Assembly: GCA_026709935.1 (NCBI GenBank)
Contig: JAPOSC010000007.1
Coordinates: 1 to 39,756, forward strand
Reading direction: 5' to 3'
DNA: 39,756 nucleotides
Origin: Thiotrichales bacterium
GTDB lineage: Bacteria > Pseudomonadota > Gammaproteobacteria > HK1
Under the pieces are notes generated by a model, which worked only from the letters and a program-made list of their open reading frames with translations, made no database searches and was not told where the DNA came from. Within the stretch, counting starts at the first letter, position 1; every line of letters begins with the position of its first letter. The position numbers and the translations under genes were made by a program. This document shows, piece by piece, positions 647-11,568 of the stretch.

Positions 647-1733
647 TTAGGAAAAGATGATACGAGCTTCGGCGTCTCACCGGCGTTCACGCGGTCCAGA
701 TCGGCACTGCTTCAGCAGATCCCCCGTTGCCCGCAGTGAGCTTAGCGTAGGGCAGCGTTCCCCGGAAGGCCCTTTGCACCAGTGCATCAATCCGATCCAG
801 CGTGTGAATCTTCACGTTTCCCTCGTTGAGCCGGAATGTGCACTCGTTCACGTAGCGGTGCAGGTGCTTGCGGCTGGCCTTATGCCAAGTGCCGTACAGC
901 CCGCGCTTCAGGAGCGCCCACATGGACTCGACGCAGTTCGTGTGAATGTCGTTCGCGCCGACGTACTCTCCGGCGCCGTGGTTGACGCTGTGGTGGGTGT
1001 AGGCGGCGAGTCCGGTGTAGCTCCCATGCTCGTCTGTGTAGACCTTCGAGCCGGGAGCGATGTGGCGAGCAATCTTGGCGTGCAGGGTGGCCTTGTCGGT
1101 GCTGGCAACTGTCATGGCGATGGATTTCCCACCTCGCTCCCGCATCCCGAGAACAGCCTGCTTGCCGACTGTGCCGCGACCGGCTTTGAGCCGCTTGTTG
1201 GCGTGCTTGCTCTTCTCCTTCCCTCCGACATAGGTCTCGTCAACCTCGATGATGCCGCGTAGCTTCTCGAAGTTCCCACCGCACACTTCCCGGAGCCGGT
1301 GCAGCATGAACCAGGCTGTCGCCTGGGTAACGCTAATCTCCTTCGAGAGCTGCATGGAGGAAATGCCCTTGCGGGCCGTCACGACCATGTAGATCGCGTA
1401 GATCCACTTGTGCAGCTTGACGTGAGACCGTTCAAACACGGTCCCCGTGCGCACCGTGAATTCCGCATCGCATTCCCGGCAGCGATAGTAGCCGATCCGC
1501 TTCCCGCCGCGAGCGGTGATTCGCTCACCGTCGCAGTGCGGGCAGATTGGCTTGCCCTTCCACCGCTGTGCTTCGAGGTAAACTCGGGCTGATTCCGCGT
1601 CCGGGAACCGCTCGAACATCTGGAACAGACTGACTGTTACGCCGTCATTCAGTGCCATTTTCCCGCCCTCACGTCTGACTGTGGGGCGATCCTACCCTAA
1701 TGGACAGGTGGAGTAAAGTAGATAATTCCCTAA
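647..1733 (-). mobile_element. IS1595-family (ISXO2-like) insertion sequence, ends approximate
   Basis: The element is defined by its transposase gene. The ends are my best guess. The right end read inward begins TTAGGGAATTATCTAC and the left end begins TTAGGAAAAGATGATAC, matching in about nine of the first twelve bases, and the implied length of about 1.09 kb is normal for the group. I could not find an 8-bp target duplication at either candidate boundary, so one end may be decayed. The truncated gene at 1743-2444 stops just outside the right end. Confidence 0.5.
687..1658 (-). CDS. IS1595-family transposase (ISXO2-like)
   Basis: A 323-residue DDE-type transposase that would cut and join the ends of its own element. 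The N-terminal zinc ribbon is complete: CPHC at about residues 39-42 and CREC at 60-63. A helix-turn-helix-like stretch follows at about 100-122. The catalytic core shows EVDETYVGG (Asp140), VYTDEHGSY (Asp209) and HTNCVESMW (Asn241/Glu244), the pattern of the ISXO2 group. The length is full for the family and no stop or shift is visible, so the protein could be active. The ATG start at 1658 leaves about 75 bases to the presumed right end. Base composition is more moderate than in the backbone genes further right. The family call is firm; activity is inferred. Confidence 0.93.
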   Translation of the reverse strand: MALNDGVTVSLFQMFERFPDAESARVYLEAQRWKGKPICPHCDGERITARGGKRIGYYRCRECDAEFTVRTGTVFERSHVKLHKWIYAIYMVVTARKGISSMQLSKEISVTQATAWFMLHRLREVCGGNFEKLRGIIEVDETYVGGKEKSKHANKRLKAGRGTVGKQAVLGMRERGGKSIAMTVASTDKATLHAKIARHIAPGSKVYTDEHGSYTGLAAYTHHSVNHGAGEYVGANDIHTNCVESMWALLKRGLYGTWHKASRKHLHRYVNECTFRLNEGNVKIHTLDRIDALVQRAFRGTLPYAKLTAGNGGSAEAVPIWTA

Positions 1734-5332: not shown

Positions 5333-6064
5333 ATGTATGAGGAGCATCCGATCTGCCAGCCTCCGCCAGACGATGCCATACTTTGGCGGTACATGGATTT
5401 CACGAAATTCGTGTCATTGCTGGAAAGCCAAGCCCTCTTCTTCTGTCGCGCCGATCTTCTCGGAGATCCGTTTGAAGGATCCATTTCGGCAGTGACCCCT
5501 GCGGCCTTCCCTCAGAATTTCAGTGCCGGTCCGGAGGTTGCCGTACATCGGATCGACCTGCGGCAAATCACTCGTATGATGTATGTCAACTGCTGGCATG
5601 GAGGCGAATTCAAATCGGAGGCGATGTGGCGACTTTATGCGAGAGAGCACGATGGGATTGCGATCAAGACGATCTTCAGGCGTTTCCGGGATGCGCTCGC
5701 TGGAGACGAAAGTGTCCATGTGTCGAGAATTCAATACAGAGATTACCGCACCGACAGTATTCCGTTCGGTAATGGACTGCTGCCGTGCCTCCACAAGAGA
5801 ATCAGCTTTCGACACGAGCAGGAAGTCAGGGTTCTGACCTTGCACGCATCTGAGAAGGATAAACCGAGTCCAGATGGGTTTTACCACAAGGTGAATCTTG
5901 AAATGCTCGTTGAGGAGATCGTCGTCGCCCCATTTACGAGAAGCTGGTTTGCCAATCTGGTACGGTCCCTTGCTGGGCGTTATGGACTCGGAGACCGCGT
6001 TCGTATGTCCGAGTTGTCAGATACCCCTACGTTCACGGCCCACTTCGTGGCATCGAAAGCTTGA
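5333..6064 (+). CDS. DUF2971-family protein
   Basis: 243 residues starting at an ATG preceded by GAGGTGG. The sequence follows the DUF2971 pattern: an early YMDFTKFVSLLESQALFFCR, then ADLLGDPFEG, a central YVNCWHGGEFKSEAMWRLYA segment and DGIAIKTIFRRFRDAL, then RISFRHEQEVRVL and EEIVVAPFTRSWF near the C-terminus. The biochemical role of the family is unknown to me, though members often sit in defence islands. It lies 136 bases after the toxin gene on the same strand and converges with the ubiquitin-like operon, with 77 bases between the two stops. Base composition is clearly lower in GC than the backbone genes, consistent with recent acquisition. The domain call is fairly firm; a link to the neighbouring defence-type operon is inferred. 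Confidence 0.8.
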   Translation: MYEEHPICQPPPDDAILWRYMDFTKFVSLLESQALFFCRADLLGDPFEGSISAVTPAAFPQNFSAGPEVAVHRIDLRQITRMMYVNCWHGGEFKSEAMWRLYAREHDGIAIKTIFRRFRDALAGDESVHVSRIQYRDYRTDSIPFGNGLLPCLHKRISFRHEQEVRVLTLHASEKDKPSPDGFYHKVNLEMLVEEIVVAPFTRSWFANLVRSLAGRYGLGDRVRMSELSDTPTFTAHFVASKA

Positions 6065-6141: not shown

Positions 6142-9100
6142 TTAGTCACTGAGCAGGTATTGCGTGACCAGTGCCCGGGTTATCGCTTCGCCGCGCCCGG
6201 ACAGCTTGCGAATGTTCTCGTCCGACATCGCCGAGAAGTCAGTTGGGTAACCGATAACGTCTTCCCGATCGATCCAGTTGGCGGGTTTCAGTAGCACACG
6301 TCGATCGATCTGGCCGAGTGCCGCATGGACGAAACCGTCGATTCGTCCGGCCTTTGCGTGATCGTGCAGTCTCTTCTTAGTCGCATCCTGGACCTTGCGC
6401 ATGACAGAGGAGACGACCCGGGTCATTCGGGTCGACCATCTGAGGGGCACGGTTTCCCCCGTGAATTGCCCGGCTCCAGCATCGCTCGCGATGATGATGT
6501 CGGGACGGTAACTGATCGCGCTCACGTCAGCATCCCGACCGGGTTCCATCACGCTGACTCCGAGGTTTTCGAAGACGCCCCCATCGGTCACTATCACGCG
6601 GGCCTTGGTTGCTTCTCCGTTCCGCTCAAAGGAGCGTGTCCAGTCGAACGGGGGCAGAAACGGAGGATAAGCAGCCGAGGCCGTGACTGCGTCGGCCACC
6701 CGAAGCTCGCTCGCCGGAGCCCATCCATATCGCCAGGCTCCAAACTGTTTGTTACTCATGCGGAATGCGGTGCCGGTTCGCAGCTCGCAGGCATTGAAGA
6801 CGATCGACTTCCCTTGACGTGTGGGTGCGTCGCAGGCGTGCTCACCGACGAGGTCAGCGACTGTATCGGCCAGGATATGTGTCCGCGAGTACCCATGGCG
6901 GAAGGGCCACGACCAACGCGAGACGACGTTGCTCGCGCCGCGAGCAGCAGGAAAGAGCGCTGCCGTCAGGCTTGCCGCCCCAGTGATCACGTCAATGGTG
7001 AGTGTGGGCAACGCGACCACAGCGACATTCCACAGGAGCCGAGCGGCACGCGCGGGATGCAAGAGCTTCCACAGTGCAGGCTTCACCAGACCACGGTGAA
7101 GGAAATCCACGGTGTACCGGTCGATTGCGTCGAATGGATCCTCGGTATAGCCGACCAGGCCGGTCAGGACCGACCCACCTGATACGCCAGAAATGATATC
7201 CACTTCGTCGAGCAGCTTGAGGTCTTCGAGGGCGCGCAAGGTGCCGAGATGAAATGCGACGGCGCGCGAGCCACCACCAGAGAGTGACAGTCCGATCCGT
7301 TGATGGAGAGTTGCCACCGGAGGCGGTTTCGTCACCCCGCCACGCACCTTGATCGCCATCGCGGATTCGACTCGACGGGTGGCCAACGTCTGTTTCTCGA
7401 ATACGTATGCCCCAATTTCGGGCCGGGGTCCGGTCGCATGCCCGACGATCACCATGAGTTGATGGGCGCCGTCATCGGGCGCGGCGGCGAAGATGGCGTC
7501 GATACCTTCGTAGTCCGTGGCGCTCGGCTCGGCCGGGCCGACGGGATGGGAGTGCCAAGTTCCGACGTAACGCACGATCCGGTGGGTCCGCCTTGCGTAG
7601 TCTTCGCAAAGCTCTCTGGTGCCGTGGGTTCCGCAGACGAAGTGTTCGGCGGAGAACTGGCTGTCCTGCGGCGGCCCACTGACGTTCGTCACCCAGGCGA
7701 TTCCCAGGGTCTCGTCAAATTCGCCGAACAGCAGGCCACCGGTTTCAGCGTCTGGACACCGTTCCCGGGCACTAGCGCGTATCCAGCCATTCAGATCCCG
7801 CCACGCGTTCGCCGAGATCCGGAACTCGAGGCCGTCAGCCATCCAACGGATGTCGGGGCGAAGCCAAAAACGGTGCTCGCGATGCTCGGAAGACTGGGAG
7901 ATGAGGAAACCGCAGGCGGAGTCATCCAGGGTGACCAGCGCCCCGGCCACTGCATTGAGTACCCGTGCCGACAGGGCAGCCACATCGGCATGTGAAGCCA
8001 CAAACGTTGGATCGGAGCATCCGGGCTCAGGTTGGCGGAGCCCCTTGATGCCACCTGCCGTCCAGAACGCCTCGGCCCAGTCGCTCAACCAGTCTCGTGC
8101 GATGGCCGCGAGGCCGAGGCGCCGAAGTGCATCCAGAGGCCCGGCTCGGTACCCGTGCGGGACGAGGACGGCCACCGCATGCTGTGCGTCGGCGCTGATC
8201 ATCACTGACGCAATCGGAACTCGCCGTTCGTGCTCCTTGAGGACACACTCGAGCTTGCTTCGCACCCGCAAGGATGCGGTGGCATCGATGATGAGGTCGA
8301 AGCCTGCGTCCCAGTCAGCCCGGATCAGCGTTTGGGAAACAATGTCCTCGTCCCGGAGCTTCAAGATGACGCATGGGTCGATGGACGCTACGCGCCGAGC
8401 AAGTGCGGCGGCCTTCGCCTCATTGGTGTCGAGCGCTGAATAGTTTTGCCGGAGCAACACGCCCGGGGTCACCCGCGCTCGATCGTAGAGCGTGAGCTCG
8501 GCGACGCCCGCGCGTGCCAAATGCTCCGCGACGAGTCCGCCGATGGCTCCGCAGCCCCAGAGCGCGACTCGCTTGTTACGAAACCAGTTCATCGGCGTTC
8601 CCTGGTCCCGCCGAGTGATGATCTCGGGCCGGTTCTCAAGCACGGCACACCAGCGCACGCGCGCTTCGTTCCGCCACTGGATCAAAGTCCCGAGTACGGT
8701 GTCGATGAGCGCTTGGATGGCACCCGGGGTCTCCTGCCCTTGGTAGTGGTGGCTGAATCGGCATGCGATGGAGGCGGCACACAGCTTAGCGACATCAGGC
8801 GGCTCAATCTCCCAGAACATGAGGTGCTGGCGTCGTCCCTCGACATTGCCCGCGATGCCGCGAGAGGGCGCGCCGACGCCGACATATAACGGCGTATCCT
8901 CCGGAACATGTTCCGATGCGAGCATCATGCGCGCGAGCAAGCGGTAGCCGAGGCCACCCTTGCTGTCCAGATACTGGAGTAGATGATGGACGGTGCGCGG
9001 ATATTCGAATGGAAGCTCGAAATCCAGCAAAGCCGTGGGGGCGAACAGCCGATCATTGGGCGAGGTGAGATCGGGCGACCAAGCGTCGACTGCGAGGAGA

Positions 9101-9642
9101 CCGGGCTTCGCCCGGGTGAGCACGGCGGCGCCGAACCACGGCCAAGTGTCACGAGCCGGCGTATCGACGTTGACGCAGATCGAGGTTGACGCAACCCGAT
9201 AGGCCACCGGAGGGTGCAACGGACCTTCGGGATCGTCGAGTTCGTTTTGGGCGCCGCGCCGAAACCACTCGTTGACCTGCGCCAGGAATCCGAACATGCC
9301 TTGCGATGGAAGCCACTGGGTCTCGATGGATTGATATATGCAGAGAAACTGCCCCCACTGGACGTGGCCGAAGCCGTGGAATCGGGTATGGACGGTGTTG
9401 ACGGAAGGCGGGCTGAACGGGAAATCTGCGGGGATCGACAGCGTGATGCCTTCCTGGGCGTGCAGCGGCAGGCCACCCTCGACACGCCGGTAGTGCGTGC
9501 AATCAAGGGTGATGTCGACACTCAGGGGGGCACTGGGCGCCGGAGGGTCGTCGACACCGATGATCCGGACGGGAGACCGATCGGTCTCGGCGATGCGCCG
9601 GAGCTGTGCGAGTGCGAGCCGTTGTCCGTCACTTGGTGTCAC
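6142..9642 (-). CDS. E2-E1(ThiF)-JAB-patatin fusion protein
   Basis: A 1166-residue single chain with four enzymatic modules. Residues 1-135 form an E2-like domain with the PADFPFSPPSV core and a candidate catalytic Cys101 in QFLCIYQS. About 135-355 is a linker of unknown fold. About 355-600 is a ThiF/E1 adenylating domain: GCGAIGG (363-369), LYDRARV, the crossover-loop candidate Cys542 in PEPGCSDPTF. Residues 600-760 are a JAB/JAMM peptidase: Glu633 in ETGGLLFG and HSHPVGPAEPSATD (697-710), a complete HxHx7SxxD motif. Residues 780-1166 are a patatin phospholipase: SGGGSRA (788-794), nucleophile Ser821 in GVSGGS, and catalytic Asp1020 in TDGGVFENLG. All key residues are intact. In type II CBASS the same four activities are separate genes (Cap2 = E2+E1, Cap3 = JAB, CapV = patatin) and serve a cyclase, none of which is visible here. 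It starts at GTG 9642, overlapping the upstream gene by 14 bases. An anti-phage membrane-damaging role is inferred. Confidence 0.93.
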   Translation of the reverse strand: MTPSDGQRLALAQLRRIAETDRSPVRIIGVDDPPAPSAPLSVDITLDCTHYRRVEGGLPLHAQEGITLSIPADFPFSPPSVNTVHTRFHGFGHVQWGQFLCIYQSIETQWLPSQGMFGFLAQVNEWFRRGAQNELDDPEGPLHPPVAYRVASTSICVNVDTPARDTWPWFGAAVLTRAKPGLLAVDAWSPDLTSPNDRLFAPTALLDFELPFEYPRTVHHLLQYLDSKGGLGYRLLARMMLASEHVPEDTPLYVGVGAPSRGIAGNVEGRRQHLMFWEIEPPDVAKLCAASIACRFSHHYQGQETPGAIQALIDTVLGTLIQWRNEARVRWCAVLENRPEIITRRDQGTPMNWFRNKRVALWGCGAIGGLVAEHLARAGVAELTLYDRARVTPGVLLRQNYSALDTNEAKAAALARRVASIDPCVILKLRDEDIVSQTLIRADWDAGFDLIIDATASLRVRSKLECVLKEHERRVPIASVMISADAQHAVAVLVPHGYRAGPLDALRRLGLAAIARDWLSDWAEAFWTAGGIKGLRQPEPGCSDPTFVASHADVAALSARVLNAVAGALVTLDDSACGFLISQSSEHREHRFWLRPDIRWMADGLEFRISANAWRDLNGWIRASARERCPDAETGGLLFGEFDETLGIAWVTNVSGPPQDSQFSAEHFVCGTHGTRELCEDYARRTHRIVRYVGTWHSHPVGPAEPSATDYEGIDAIFAAAPDDGAHQLMVIVGHATGPRPEIGAYVFEKQTLATRRVESAMAIKVRGGVTKPPPVATLHQRIGLSLSGGGSRAVAFHLGTLRALEDLKLLDEVDIISGVSGGSVLTGLVGYTEDPFDAIDRYTVDFLHRGLVKPALWKLLHPARAARLLWNVAVVALPTLTIDVITGAASLTAALFPAARGASNVVSRWSWPFRHGYSRTHILADTVADLVGEHACDAPTRQGKSIVFNACELRTGTAFRMSNKQFGAWRYGWAPASELRVADAVTASAAYPPFLPPFDWTRSFERNGEATKARVIVTDGGVFENLGVSVMEPGRDADVSAISYRPDIIIASDAGAGQFTGETVPLRWSTRMTRVVSSVMRKVQDATKKRLHDHAKAGRIDGFVHAALGQIDRRVLLKPANWIDREDVIGYPTDFSAMSDENIRKLSGRGEAITRALVTQYLLSD

Positions 9643-10783
9643 GACCGAACCCGACCGCCGTCGCCGGTGCGACCGTGACAGCCCCCGCAGCCTTCAACGC
9701 ATCGCTCATCGGCTTGCTTGACCCACTCTCACCGACGTAGGTGCATCCTGACTCGCTGACTTCGAAGATGACCGGCGCGGGATGCCCCCCATCGTGAGGT
9801 TCATGGGTGCAGATGAAATCGTTGGGCACGATGCGTTGGTATTGGCGCTTCGCCTTGGCGTGGGGTGGGTTGTCGCCCGGGCGGTTGTGCGCTGGCACCG
9901 GCTCCGAGCTTGAGACGACATAGCCAGGATCGAGGGCAGCGTTCTCAAGATCACGCACGATGTCGGACTTCAGCGTCTCGTCGTCATCCCCCTCATCCTG
10001 CCAGTACATTACGGACTTCGAACAGTGATGGGGGGCCAGCAGGACGTTCCAGGCCAGCGCACTGTCGTCACTGCGGTCGAAAATCCGCCGAATGACAGGA
10101 TAGCTGAGGTCCCCCATGAGCAGCGCCCGCCCGGCGCCATGGTCGTTGTAAAGAGTGATCTGGAACGCAAGGCTACAGTCGTTGCGATCACCGAAGCTGT
10201 CGTCTTTGAACGGGGCGTGCACGAATGCCTCGAACACTTCGGAGAGATCATCGCCGTCGAGGATTCCGATGGCCTGCCCCGGGATGGACAGGAGCGCTTC
10301 GGGAAAGCCATCGAAATCGGGCTCTTCGAGCAGGTCATCGTATCCGATGATGCGAATTCGGTTGCCTCGACCGGGATCGCCTCCTGCGTCAATGGACGCC
10401 TGGACGCGCCGCATCGCCTCGTCGTGAAAGGCTTGTGCGTCGTCGCAGAGGTCGTTGTTGTCTCGAAACTCGCGAAACGTGCGTGGCGACATCCAGATTT
10501 CCGAGACGATCACGCGGTCGTTCAGATCCTCGAAGCCCCGGCAGTGGTCCTGATCAGGATGCGTGAGCGCGAAGACCGAGAGGTAGGGTTTGTCGCGCAG
10601 GGTCGGCAATATCTCGATCAGCTCGTCGATCACTGGCCACGCCGGATCCTCGTCATCTTCGGACTTGGCCATGTGATGAAGATCAATCTGGAGATAGACG
10701 GTATCGGCCACTCGGACAGTCGTGCTGTCGCCGGTGCCGACGGGCCAGAAGATGAAGCCCTGGTTGGGAGGATGAATGGCCAT
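9629..10783 (-). CDS. metallo-beta-lactamase-fold hydrolase, operon partner of the fusion protein
   Basis: 384 residues. The metal motif is LTHPDQDHCRGF (His75, Asp77, Asp79, His80), followed by SLAFQITLYNDHGAGRALL leading to the metal Asp225 in LLMGDLSYP and His252 in LLAPHHCSKS. This is the order of an MBL-fold hydrolase of the ComEC/Rec2-like or RNase-like branch, without membrane segments, so it should be cytoplasmic. The C-terminal 60 residues are less ordered and end in VGFGRDTK. CAGGAGG stands nine bases before the ATG. The 14-base overlap with the next gene indicates coupled expression. MBL-fold proteins beside E2/E1/JAB genes were noted in surveys of prokaryotic ubiquitin-like systems, so the pairing is not accidental. 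Substrate unknown: nucleic acid, a nucleotide signal or a modified protein are all possible. Confidence 0.85.
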   Translation of the reverse strand: MAIHPPNQGFIFWPVGTGDSTTVRVADTVYLQIDLHHMAKSEDDEDPAWPVIDELIEILPTLRDKPYLSVFALTHPDQDHCRGFEDLNDRVIVSEIWMSPRTFREFRDNNDLCDDAQAFHDEAMRRVQASIDAGGDPGRGNRIRIIGYDDLLEEPDFDGFPEALLSIPGQAIGILDGDDLSEVFEAFVHAPFKDDSFGDRNDCSLAFQITLYNDHGAGRALLMGDLSYPVIRRIFDRSDDSALAWNVLLAPHHCSKSVMYWQDEGDDDETLKSDIVRDLENAALDPGYVVSSSEPVPAHNRPGDNPPHAKAKRQYQRIVPNDFICTHEPHDGGHPAPVIFEVSESGCTYVGESGSSKPMSDALKAAGAVTVAPATAVGFGRDTK

Positions 10784-11122: not shown

Positions 11123-11434
11123 TCAAGGCGAGTTCGACCTGGCATCTTCGATCAGACTCGGCACGATTTTGGAGATGCCGCGCCGGATCTGTTCGATTTC
11201 CTCGGCGCGCCCGTCGGCGATCATGCTGCGTGCGAGGGCTTGGGCGGCGAACATCGCCGAGCGCAGGAGCTGGATTTCGAGCTCGGTCCGGGGCCATTCA
11301 CGTCGGTCGAGGGCCTCGACGGCGAGCTCGACCAGAAGCTGGTTGGGGCTCATGTTGCGCGCTTCGGCGAGGGCTTCGATGCGCCGCCAGTGGTCTTCGC
11401 CGATGCGGATGTGCCTGCTGAGGGTCTTGGCCAT
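11123..11434 (-). CDS. ribbon-helix-helix (CopG-like) DNA-binding protein
   Basis: 103 residues from the ATG at 11434, which has GGAGGG nine bases upstream. The alternative GTG at 11440 is too close to that site. The N-terminal 45 residues, SRHIRIGEDHWRRIEALAEA followed by RNMSPNQLLVELAVEAL, form the short beta strand and two helices of a ribbon-helix-helix DNA-binding domain. The rest is a long helical tail (LRSAMFAAQALARSMIADGR, IRRGISKIVPSLIEDA). Such proteins are usually autorepressors of plasmid maintenance or TA operons, or accessory relaxosome proteins. Four 17-bp operator-like palindromes lie 135-304 bases upstream of the start, making an autoregulatory or centromere-binding role likely. 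No toxin or relaxase gene is adjacent, so the partner is unclear. Confidence 0.75.
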   Translation of the reverse strand: MAKTLSRHIRIGEDHWRRIEALAEARNMSPNQLLVELAVEALDRREWPRTELEIQLLRSAMFAAQALARSMIADGRAEEIEQIRRGISKIVPSLIEDARSNSP

Positions 11435-11568
11435 GACCACCGTCCCTCCGGAATCCTTGTCGTTTCTCGCGCGATTCCCGCGACAAACCCGGCCCGTATT
11501 GTGCCGTTTCCGAAGCGGATTCGTCGCGCCGGAGACCTGATTCCGGGCGAACCCGTCCTGAGCACCGT

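What the first reader, a model, noticed from the sequence alone, without database searches (positions are those of the whole stretch)
6142..10783. Single-chain E2-E1-JAB-patatin protein coupled to an MBL-fold hydrolase: a cyclase-free CBASS-like system
Seen: one 1166-residue protein with intact E2 Cys101, E1 nucleotide loop and Cys542, a full JAMM motif and a full patatin Ser821/Asp1020 pair, overlapping by 14 bases an MBL-fold gene. Known: type II CBASS uses Cap2 (E2+E1), Cap3 (JAB) and CapV (patatin) as separate proteins around a CD-NTase. E2/E1/JAB genes with MBL neighbours were described in surveys of prokaryotic ubiquitin-like systems by Iyer, Burroughs and Aravind. Inference: I do not recall patatin in the same chain, and no CD-NTase is present here, so conjugation may directly control a phospholipase that attacks the membrane on infection. 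The protease could act as the off or on switch.
Basis: partly seen in the sequence, partly recalled or inferred. Interest (0 to 1): 0.93.

Follow-up and report, generated by a model that had tools for sequence, protein, structure and literature searches.

The report
Enzyme likely serving as protein tag
Two overlapping bacterial genes encode a one-chain ubiquitin-type machine (attaching and removing domains) fused to a phospholipase-like domain, and a metallo-enzyme whose floppy tail carries a conserved glycine by which it is likely itself attached to other proteins, in what is probably an anti-virus system; if so, a second kind of enzyme besides the known nucleotide cyclases would serve as a bacterial protein tag.

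Summary
In detail: one 1166-residue chain carries E2, E1, JAB and patatin domains with intact catalytic residues and overlaps an MBL-fold gene by 14 bp. It is no assembly join: 115 of the 120 listed best database hits (window included) show all four domains. The E2-E1-JAB part and the MBL both pass the cut-offs of NCBIfam's "anti-phage 6A-MBL system" models, so the core is a known kind (row 6a of Iyer 2006). Added here: (1) patatin belongs to this system, fused in 35 and a separate adjacent gene in 41 of 105 related loci; in 11 of the 24 loci without it a small membrane-protein gene follows directly. (2) No ubiquitin-like gene was recognised and no cyclase lies in the operon, yet the MBL protein ends in a disordered tail with a glycine motif 0-6 residues from its C-terminus in 89 of 89 distinct tails (shuffles: mean 20, maximum 33); codons vary, and 13 tails stop exactly at that glycine. 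Likely mechanism: the MBL enzyme is the modifier, trimmed by JAB, charged by E1/E2 and attached to targets, with the patatin as membrane-attacking effector. Conjugation, targets and phage defence are untested.

The parts
9629..10783 (-). MBL-fold hydrolase gene, 384 aa, first gene of the pair; predicted protein modifier
10544..10561 (-). MBL metal motif H75-P-D77-Q-D79-H80 (role recalled from the MBL superfamily)
   Evidence: H75, D77, D79, H80 among the invariant columns of 63 diverse relatives
9632..9730 (-). Flexible C-terminal tail of the MBL protein, residues 352-384
   Evidence: pLDDT under 50 for 355-364 and 366-384
9644..9652 (-). G378-F379-G380, conserved modifier-like motif; Gly380 is the predicted conjugation residue
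   Evidence: G378 120, F379 119, G380 120 of 121; [FYHA]G within 6 residues of the C-terminus in 89 of 89 distinct tails
9632..9643 (-). Last four residues R-D-T-K, predicted to be trimmed off
   Evidence: variable in sequence and in length (0-6 residues) among 89 tails, 13 of which end exactly at the Gly
6142..9642 (-). E2-E1-JAB-patatin single-chain protein, 1166 aa
   Evidence: model pLDDT 82.1, pTM 0.74
9154..9525 (-). E2 domain (residues 40-163), Cys101
   Evidence: PF14457 63.3 bits; Cys101 in 84 of 84 diverse rows
7852..8580 (-). E1/ThiF adenylation domain (residues 355-597), Cys542 in QPEPGCSDPT
7447..7782 (-). JAB/JAMM domain (residues 621-732), E633, H697, H699, S707, D710
   Evidence: PF14464 39.8 bits; E633, H697, H699, S707 84 of 84, D710 83 of 84
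6145..7290 (-). Patatin domain (residues 785-1166), Ser821 and Asp1020

Best explanation
This gene pair is a member of the 6A-MBL kind of predicted anti-phage system in which the MBL-fold enzyme itself is likely the ubiquitin-like modifier, conjugated through Gly380 of its flexible tail by the E1 and E2 domains of its partner, while the partner's fused patatin domain is predicted to be the membrane-attacking effector. Steps. (1) Shown by sequence and model: the MBL protein has a tail predicted to be disordered with a conserved glycine motif, and its partner has intact E1, E2 and JAB active-site residues. (2) Inferred: JAB trims the last four residues after Gly380. (3) Inferred: E1 adenylates the new C-terminus, the MBL passes to Cys542 and Cys101 and is joined to a lysine or other nucleophile of a target (unknown; possibly the machine itself, a membrane protein or a phage protein); JAB can reverse it. 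(4) Inferred by analogy with CD-NTase conjugation in type II CBASS: attachment poises the MBL enzyme (a ComEC-like phosphodiesterase or nuclease fold) to act on infection. (5) Inferred: this unleashes the patatin, which cuts membrane phospholipids and stops the infection by killing or arresting the cell. Fusion in some lineages and separate adjacent genes in others suggests that the patatin works docked on the conjugating machine.
For: Core identity: NF058523 357.8 bits (cut-off 320) and NF058524 287.7 bits (cut-off 220). MBL and E2-E1-JAB occur together: of 398 sampled genomes of the phylum (own included) 6 pass the cut-off for the E2-E1-JAB model and 7 for the MBL; all 6 are among the 7, and in the seventh the E1 gene lies in two pieces. 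Tail: 89 of 89 distinct tails from 93 loci in many phyla; shuffled tails mean 19.7, maximum 33 of 89; 23 of 23 representatives at 50% identity, one of them (L042) being a frameshifted piece that passes by chance; other C-termini from the same loci are at chance (JAB ends 5 of 63, separate patatins 2 of 38, fused chains 2 of 34). 13 of 89 end exactly at the glycine; 9 of 9 chosen MBLs that are not the E1 partner lack the motif (8 distinct ends). All four Gly codons used at both positions, and the motif persists where the two frames cannot overlap (L007, L008, L030), so no ribosome-site or overlap effect. Tail disordered in the model. Catalytic cysteines of E2 and E1 84 of 84. E1 region's nearest solved structures include Cap2 with the CdnD02 C-terminus bound. 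Precedent: PMC10097602 (passages) noted the same kind of conserved C-terminal Gly/Ala in cGAS and showed conjugation through it. Effector: patatin fused in 35 and separate in 41 of 105 loci; fused/separate/absent needs 10 changes on the tree; a 2-4-TM gene directly downstream in 11 of 24 patatin-less loci; patatin fold close to CapE and CapV.
Against: No conjugate, thioester or phage phenotype has been tested. The motif was defined after I had seen the tails, and the loci are not independent of each other. A terminal glycine motif could be a non-covalent docking peptide. The window's protein does not end on the glycine, so a trimming step is needed that is only inferred. The E1/MBL co-variation is also expected from two linked genes. 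MBL controls are few, distant and picked by me; a 157-aa truncated MBL (L104, in G207, a few kb from another type of E1 gene) ends SFGD and matches the motif. Asp453, by eye the counterpart of the MoeB catalytic Asp (assignment recalled), is Asp in only 73 of 84 rows, Asn in 10, Glu in 1. Six patatin-less loci show no obvious membrane or second-MBL gene (L042, L051, L054, L091, L113, L120). The window's genome has two CD-NTase genes on other contigs, and one related locus (L015) has one on the opposite strand about 4 kb away, so a cyclase acting in trans is not excluded. The 'anti-phage' label is NCBIfam's; I found no paper behind it.
Confidence: 0.62

Rival explanations
1. The MBL tail is a docking peptide: the E1 pocket holds it non-covalently and the E1/E2/JAB domains act on another, undetected modifier (a ubiquitin-like protein or CD-NTase encoded elsewhere).
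For: The genome holds two DncV-like CD-NTases on other contigs; the tail also has a conserved upstream element, ARG..PP, in the consensus of 63 relatives.
Against: 36 of 47 searched genomes with such loci have no SMODS match at E<=0.001 (other CD-NTase families not searched). A docking motif has no reason to sit at the very C-terminus, yet 13 of 89 tails end at the glycine and the rest within 6 residues.
Confidence: 0.17
2. One reading: conjugation of some protein directly switches the phospholipase on or off; the MBL is a separate accessory hydrolase, not the modifier.
For: Patatin is fused to the conjugating chain or encoded directly after it in 76 of 105 loci.
Against: Leaves the conserved MBL C-terminus unexplained and names no modifier; no ubiquitin-like gene was recognised by Pfam among the 19 window proteins scanned.
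Confidence: 0.1
3. The pair is a housekeeping or metabolic module (for example a ThiF/MoeB-type sulfur or lipid pathway) rather than defence.
For: E1 part matches ThiF/MoeB/TcdA models weakly; no phage test is known to me.
Against: Far below those models' cut-offs; sporadic: 2 of 55 genomes of the relatives search, the own one and one with a fragment; plasmid copies beside restriction-modification genes, DUF1788/DUF1819 genes and WYL or HTH+ImmA/IrrE regulator genes; fused or exchanged with membrane-attack-type partners.
Confidence: 0.06
4. The glycine motif is a by-product of the overlapping start region of the downstream gene.
For: In the window the genes overlap by 14 bases, and the downstream GTG begins one base after the Gly380 codon.
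Against: Codon choice varies freely and the motif stays where overlap is impossible (L007, L008, L030).
Confidence: 0.02

Closest known systems
6A-MBL anti-phage system (NCBIfam NF058523 + NF058524; row 6a of Iyer et al. 2006, PMC1779556)
   Same: E2-E1-JAB single chain plus adjacent MBL-fold gene; both proteins above the curated cut-offs
   Different: The NCBIfam profile ends after JAB (residue 732 here); a patatin is fused on behind it. The Iyer 2006 text, by term search, has no 'patatin' and no 'phospholipase'. No statement found in print that the MBL is the modifier (ten searches, see Tried and rejected)
Type II CBASS (Cap2, Cap3, CD-NTase, CapV/CapE)
   Same: E1 and E2 related to Cap2 (7tsq/7to3), a JAB domain as in Cap3, patatin fold like CapE/CapV, partner enzyme with a conserved C-terminal glycine
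   Different: No CD-NTase in the operon; MBL in its place; all conjugation domains and the effector in one chain; tail mostly with 1-6 extra residues after the glycine (76 of 89)
Bil and Bub bacterial ubiquitin-like pathways (Chambers 2024, Hor 2024, Ye 2026: seen only as citations in PMC13373217)
   Same: E1, E2 and JAB enzymes in a predicted immune operon; trimming of a precursor tail is recalled from that literature, not read
   Different: No beta-grasp ubiquitin-like gene recognised here
[quoted passage not shown]
   Same: Probably the same group: 7 such operons with upstream capK/capS
   Different: Only mentioned in that paper's main text, not described
PADLOC candidate PDC-M48 (A: membrane protein in L044; B: matches MBLs)
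   Same: The membrane gene after L044's E2-E1-JAB is PDC-M48A, 207 bits; the window MBL matches PDC-M48B weakly, 27.7 bits
   Different: Membership of the window not claimed

Membership tests
6A-MBL anti-phage system | Protein over the cut-off of NF058523 (E2-E1-JAB) | tested here: met
   357.8 bits against 320
6A-MBL anti-phage system | Protein over the cut-off of NF058524 (MBL) | tested here: met
   287.7 bits against 220
6A-MBL anti-phage system | The two genes adjacent in one operon | tested here: met
   14-bp overlap, same strand
6A-MBL anti-phage system | Protection against phage | not testable with these tools
   needs experiment
Type II CBASS | CD-NTase in the operon | tested here: not met
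   the SMODS search of the whole genome hits only contigs C9 and C34, not the window's C31
Type II CBASS | E2-E1 chain (as Cap2) with catalytic cysteines | tested here: met
Type II CBASS | JAB domain with JAMM residues (as in Cap3) | tested here: met
   residues conserved; but fused, and far below the Cap3 model's cut-off (20.5 of 200 bits)
Type II CBASS | Signal enzyme (CD-NTase) with conserved C-terminal Gly/Ala | tested here: not met
   there is no CD-NTase in the operon; the matching feature is carried by the MBL instead
Type II CBASS | Effector switched on by a cyclic nucleotide | not testable with these tools
   needs experiment
Bil/Bub pathways | Ubiquitin-like (beta-grasp) gene in the operon | tested here: inconclusive
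   none recognised by Pfam among the 19 window proteins scanned; short or diverged genes not excluded

The most novel reading that the evidence does not exclude
A whole class of bacterial immune systems uses a metallo-hydrolase as its ubiquitin: the ComEC-like MBL enzyme is trimmed, charged and covalently attached through its tail glycine by a one-chain E2-E1-JAB machine that carries its own membrane-killing patatin, a second non-ubiquitin-fold enzyme modifier beside the CD-NTases.
Probability: 0.65. Interest if true: 0.9.

Novelty: new variant of a known kind. Interest (0 to 1): 0.8.

Why it matters
Row 6a of the 2006 survey lists E2, E1, JAB and MBL but no ubiquitin-like partner, and I found no later text that says what such operons conjugate. 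The conserved tail glycine of the MBL gives a concrete candidate that one gel can test. If right, enzyme-as-modifier is a general strategy of bacterial immunity rather than a peculiarity of cyclases, and the interchange of patatin and small membrane-protein genes would mean that the machinery is coupled to swappable membrane-attack parts. DNA like the E. coli SE11 pair is in 31 of 5426 complete E. coli genomes, 29 of them with at least 80% of it, so tests in a laboratory host are within reach.

Tried and rejected
Assembly join: rejected, since other database proteins show the same four-domain chain. Overlap or ribosome-site cause of the GFG motif: rejected by codon variation and non-overlapping loci. 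Self-modification through the big chain's own C-terminus: rejected as the modifier, since it mostly ends YLLSD or YLLTD, without glycine (motif in 2 of 34 fused chains). Cyclase dependence: of 48 loci submitted (of the 80) one genome was not held (L049); of the other 47, 11 have a SMODS hit and 36 do not. A curated family for the separate patatins or the membrane proteins: none over a cut-off in NCBIfam for the 4 patatins and 11 membrane proteins given; in PADLOC only L044's was strong, of 10 given. A first regular expression for the patatin nucleophile elbow was flawed and redone (xxSGG in 74 of 74 patatin ORFs; the one ExSGG is half of the split L112 gene and may be chance). Viral contigs: 4 loci, of which one, L093, has the four domains and L095 the patatin-less form.

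Rows dropped and choices: the loci are the best 80 of 262 matching stretches plus those plasmid regions picked by me; they include near-copies, and L009/L012 are two pieces of one operon. The tree uses 84 of the 105 loci; left out were 4 fragments (L024, L066, L076, L089), 7 loci without the full gene or of another type (L009, L010, L011, L012, L039, L040, L094), 9 near-copies, and L121, whose E1 gene is spread over two frames. The alignment left out the 10 listed hits shorter than 1100 aa. In one search the L042 tail came from a frameshifted first piece and passed by chance; one search uses its true end, which also passes. L104 was not counted among partners or controls. For L004, L014 and L019 two candidate glycines exist; I chose by hand. 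Patatin-less loci (24): TM gene directly downstream 11 (L005, L006, L007, L008, L041, L044, L074, L086, L090, L115, L118); downstream on the other strand L116; TM gene upstream on the other strand L110, L114 (L114 also has a second MBL); second MBL downstream L004, L095; none seen 6; not examined L043, L094. TM counts are a simple hydropathy scan.

Literature: ten searches, all in open-licence PMC papers to August 2026, no preprints. In the listings and passages seen, none describes the patatin chain or MBL conjugation; a paper behind the NCBIfam name may exist outside this library.
Full report
What is there. On the minus strand, an MBL-fold gene (9629-10783, 384 aa) is followed, with a 14-base overlap, by a gene for one 1166-residue chain (6142-9642). 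Pfam finds Prok-E2_A, ThiF, Prok-JAB and Patatin in that order. Cys101, Cys542, the JAMM residues, Ser821 and Asp1020 are identical in 110 of 110 aligned relatives, and 115 of the 120 listed database hits have all four domains.

What it belongs to. NCBIfam release 20 (June 2026) has two models for an 'anti-phage 6A-MBL system'; the chain passes one over residues 58-732 (357.8 bits, cut-off 320) and the MBL passes the other (287.7, cut-off 220). This is row 6a of Iyer et al. 2006 (PMC1779556, passages and table row read): E2, E1 and JAB in one polypeptide, 'almost always next to a metallo-beta-lactamase'. That text has no occurrence of patatin or phospholipase. [quoted passage not shown]

Relatives. 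One scan of one genome each for 84,980 species matched 262 stretches, of which the best 80 were kept as loci; viral contigs gave 4 loci, two of them of this kind (L093, L095); genome searches gave L001-L012; and 12 plasmid regions were picked, L110-L121. HMMs built here were used to annotate them. Of 105 loci with an E2-E1 or JAB gene, patatin is fused in 35, a separate neighbouring gene in 41, absent in 24; in 4 the stretch held ends too soon, and 1 is undetermined because its gene is in pieces. On a tree of 84 of them, fused/separate/absent needs 10 changes, against 39.6 for shuffled labels; well-supported branches alone force at least 3 changes of 'fused'. The patatin-less loci L041, L043 and L044 are the sister group of the window's own fused clade; L041 and L044 have a small membrane-protein gene there (L043's downstream gene was not examined). 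In 11 of the 24 patatin-less loci a 2-4-TM gene follows directly. I read this as one effector slot that is filled either by a phospholipase or by a small membrane protein (inference).

The modifier. The system has ubiquitin-type enzymes but no recognised ubiquitin-like protein (19 window proteins scanned) and no cyclase in the operon. In type II CBASS the thing conjugated is the cyclase itself, by its C-terminal glycine; that residue is conserved as Gly/Ala in an alignment of 1,583 cyclases from operons with full Cap2 and Cap3, and not in other architectures (PMC10097602, passages). I applied the same reasoning to the MBL. In 121 close homologues (window included) much of the last 30 residues drifts, but G378, F379 and G380 stay (120, 119 and 120 of 121). 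In 89 distinct tails from 93 loci, down to 28% identity to the window's protein, an F/Y/H/A-G pair lies 0-6 residues from the end in all 89; shuffling the tails gives a mean of 19.7 and a maximum of 33 in 2000 trials, and other C-termini of the same loci are at chance. The pattern was defined after the tails had been seen. Extension lengths are 0:13, 1:8, 2:37, 3:15, 4:13, 6:3. Nine MBL proteins that are distant relatives or second MBLs, not the E1 partner, lack it, 0 of 9 (8 distinct ends); a tenth, the truncated L104, has it. The 62 GFG/GYG tails use 29 codon combinations with all four glycine codons at both positions, and the motif stays where the frames cannot overlap (L007, L008, L030). 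The predicted structure is confident up to about residue 350 and disordered over nearly all of 355-384. The letter before the glycine follows the E1 tree in 5 changes, the least possible being 3 and the shuffled mean 24.7; that fits recognition by the cognate E1 but is also expected of linked genes.

Mechanism and what is shown. Shown by sequence or model: domains, conserved active-site residues, conserved tail predicted to be disordered, linkage and exchange of patatin. Inferred: trimming by JAB, charging and attachment of the MBL, reversal by JAB, and patatin-driven membrane damage on infection. Untested: defence, targets, trigger. In type II CBASS, conjugation has been reported both to raise cyclase output (PMC10097602, passages) and, in a proposed model, to hold the cyclase inactive on PspA (PMC11153139, passages), so the direction of control here is open.

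Cyclase-free? The window's contig has no SMODS match, but two DncV-like CD-NTase genes lie on other contigs of the genome. Of 47 searched genomes with related loci 36 have no SMODS match. Among the 14 hit places in the other 11, one lies near a locus: L015, on the opposite strand about 4 kb from the MBL gene with other ORFs between. Other CD-NTase families were not searched. A cyclase in trans is therefore unlikely to be a general requirement, though not excluded.

Immune context. Plasmid loci lie beside WYL genes (L110, L114, L120), an HTH + ImmA/IrrE pair (L115), type I restriction genes (L118) and DUF1788/DUF1819 genes (L117). CapW (WYL) and CapH+CapP are named beside Bub operons in PMC13373217 (passage); that the WYL and HTH+ImmA/IrrE genes here are such regulators is my inference. 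The system is sporadic: among 55 genomes of the relatives search (the window's own included) only the own copy and one C-terminal patatin fragment were found.

Verdict. A real, widespread variant of a known kind, with a specific and cheap-to-test prediction about what its ubiquitin-type enzymes conjugate.

Noticed in passing
window 5333-6064 (+): DUF2971 gene, convergent with the big gene, matching PADLOC defence candidate PDC-S31 (82.5 bits); a possible neighbouring defence gene.
   Followed up: no
window 687-1658 (-): IS1595-family transposase gene, 323 aa.
   Followed up: no
window 14973-36857 (-): Strawberry-notch-like helicase (1945 aa), DUF7146/Toprim protein, DUF2201 VWA protein, weak AAA, ParB_N and HATPase hits: looks like a large mobile element or plasmid (reading is mine).
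   Followed up: partly
window 11123-11440 (-): 105-aa ORF upstream of the MBL gene that reads like a ribbon-helix-helix regulator by eye; no Pfam, PADLOC or NCBIfam hit at E<=0.01.
   Followed up: no
L124:4209-5483, L125:4687-6033 (own genome, other contigs) and L015:394-1581: Three CD-NTase genes whose C-termini read HTFYGGQG, HTFYGEERTKQPC and HTFYGAP: a TFYG just before the end that recalls the TYG tails of some MBLs.
   Followed up: partly
L004:3671-4741, L095:8225-9337, L114:7941-9047: A second MBL gene follows the E2-E1-JAB gene; it lacks the tail glycine; L114's copy matches Avs1a and ComEC models weakly.
   Followed up: partly
L044:4026-4532: The membrane-protein gene after the Vibrio E2-E1-JAB gene is PADLOC candidate PDC-M48A (207 bits), linking two candidate systems.
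   Followed up: no
L018:3112-4981: A second, different E1-like ORF and a JAB ORF lie just upstream of the four-domain locus.
   Followed up: no
L110 (E. coli SE11 plasmid pSE11-2): Patatin-less 6A-MBL pair, both proteins far over the NCBIfam cut-offs; similar DNA in 31 of 5426 E. coli genomes.
   Followed up: partly
L042, L112, L121, L009/L012: Broken or split copies: MBL in two frames (L042), separate patatin in two frames (L112), E1 gene over two frames (L121), E1 gene in two pieces with other ORFs between them (L009/L012). Not mended.
   Followed up: no
L128 (G446, same genus): 222-aa open frame matching only residues 951-1166 of the chain (81%), a possible remnant.
   Followed up: no
L104 (G207): 157-aa truncated MBL relative a few kb from another type of E1 gene (L010); it ends SFGD.
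   Followed up: partly
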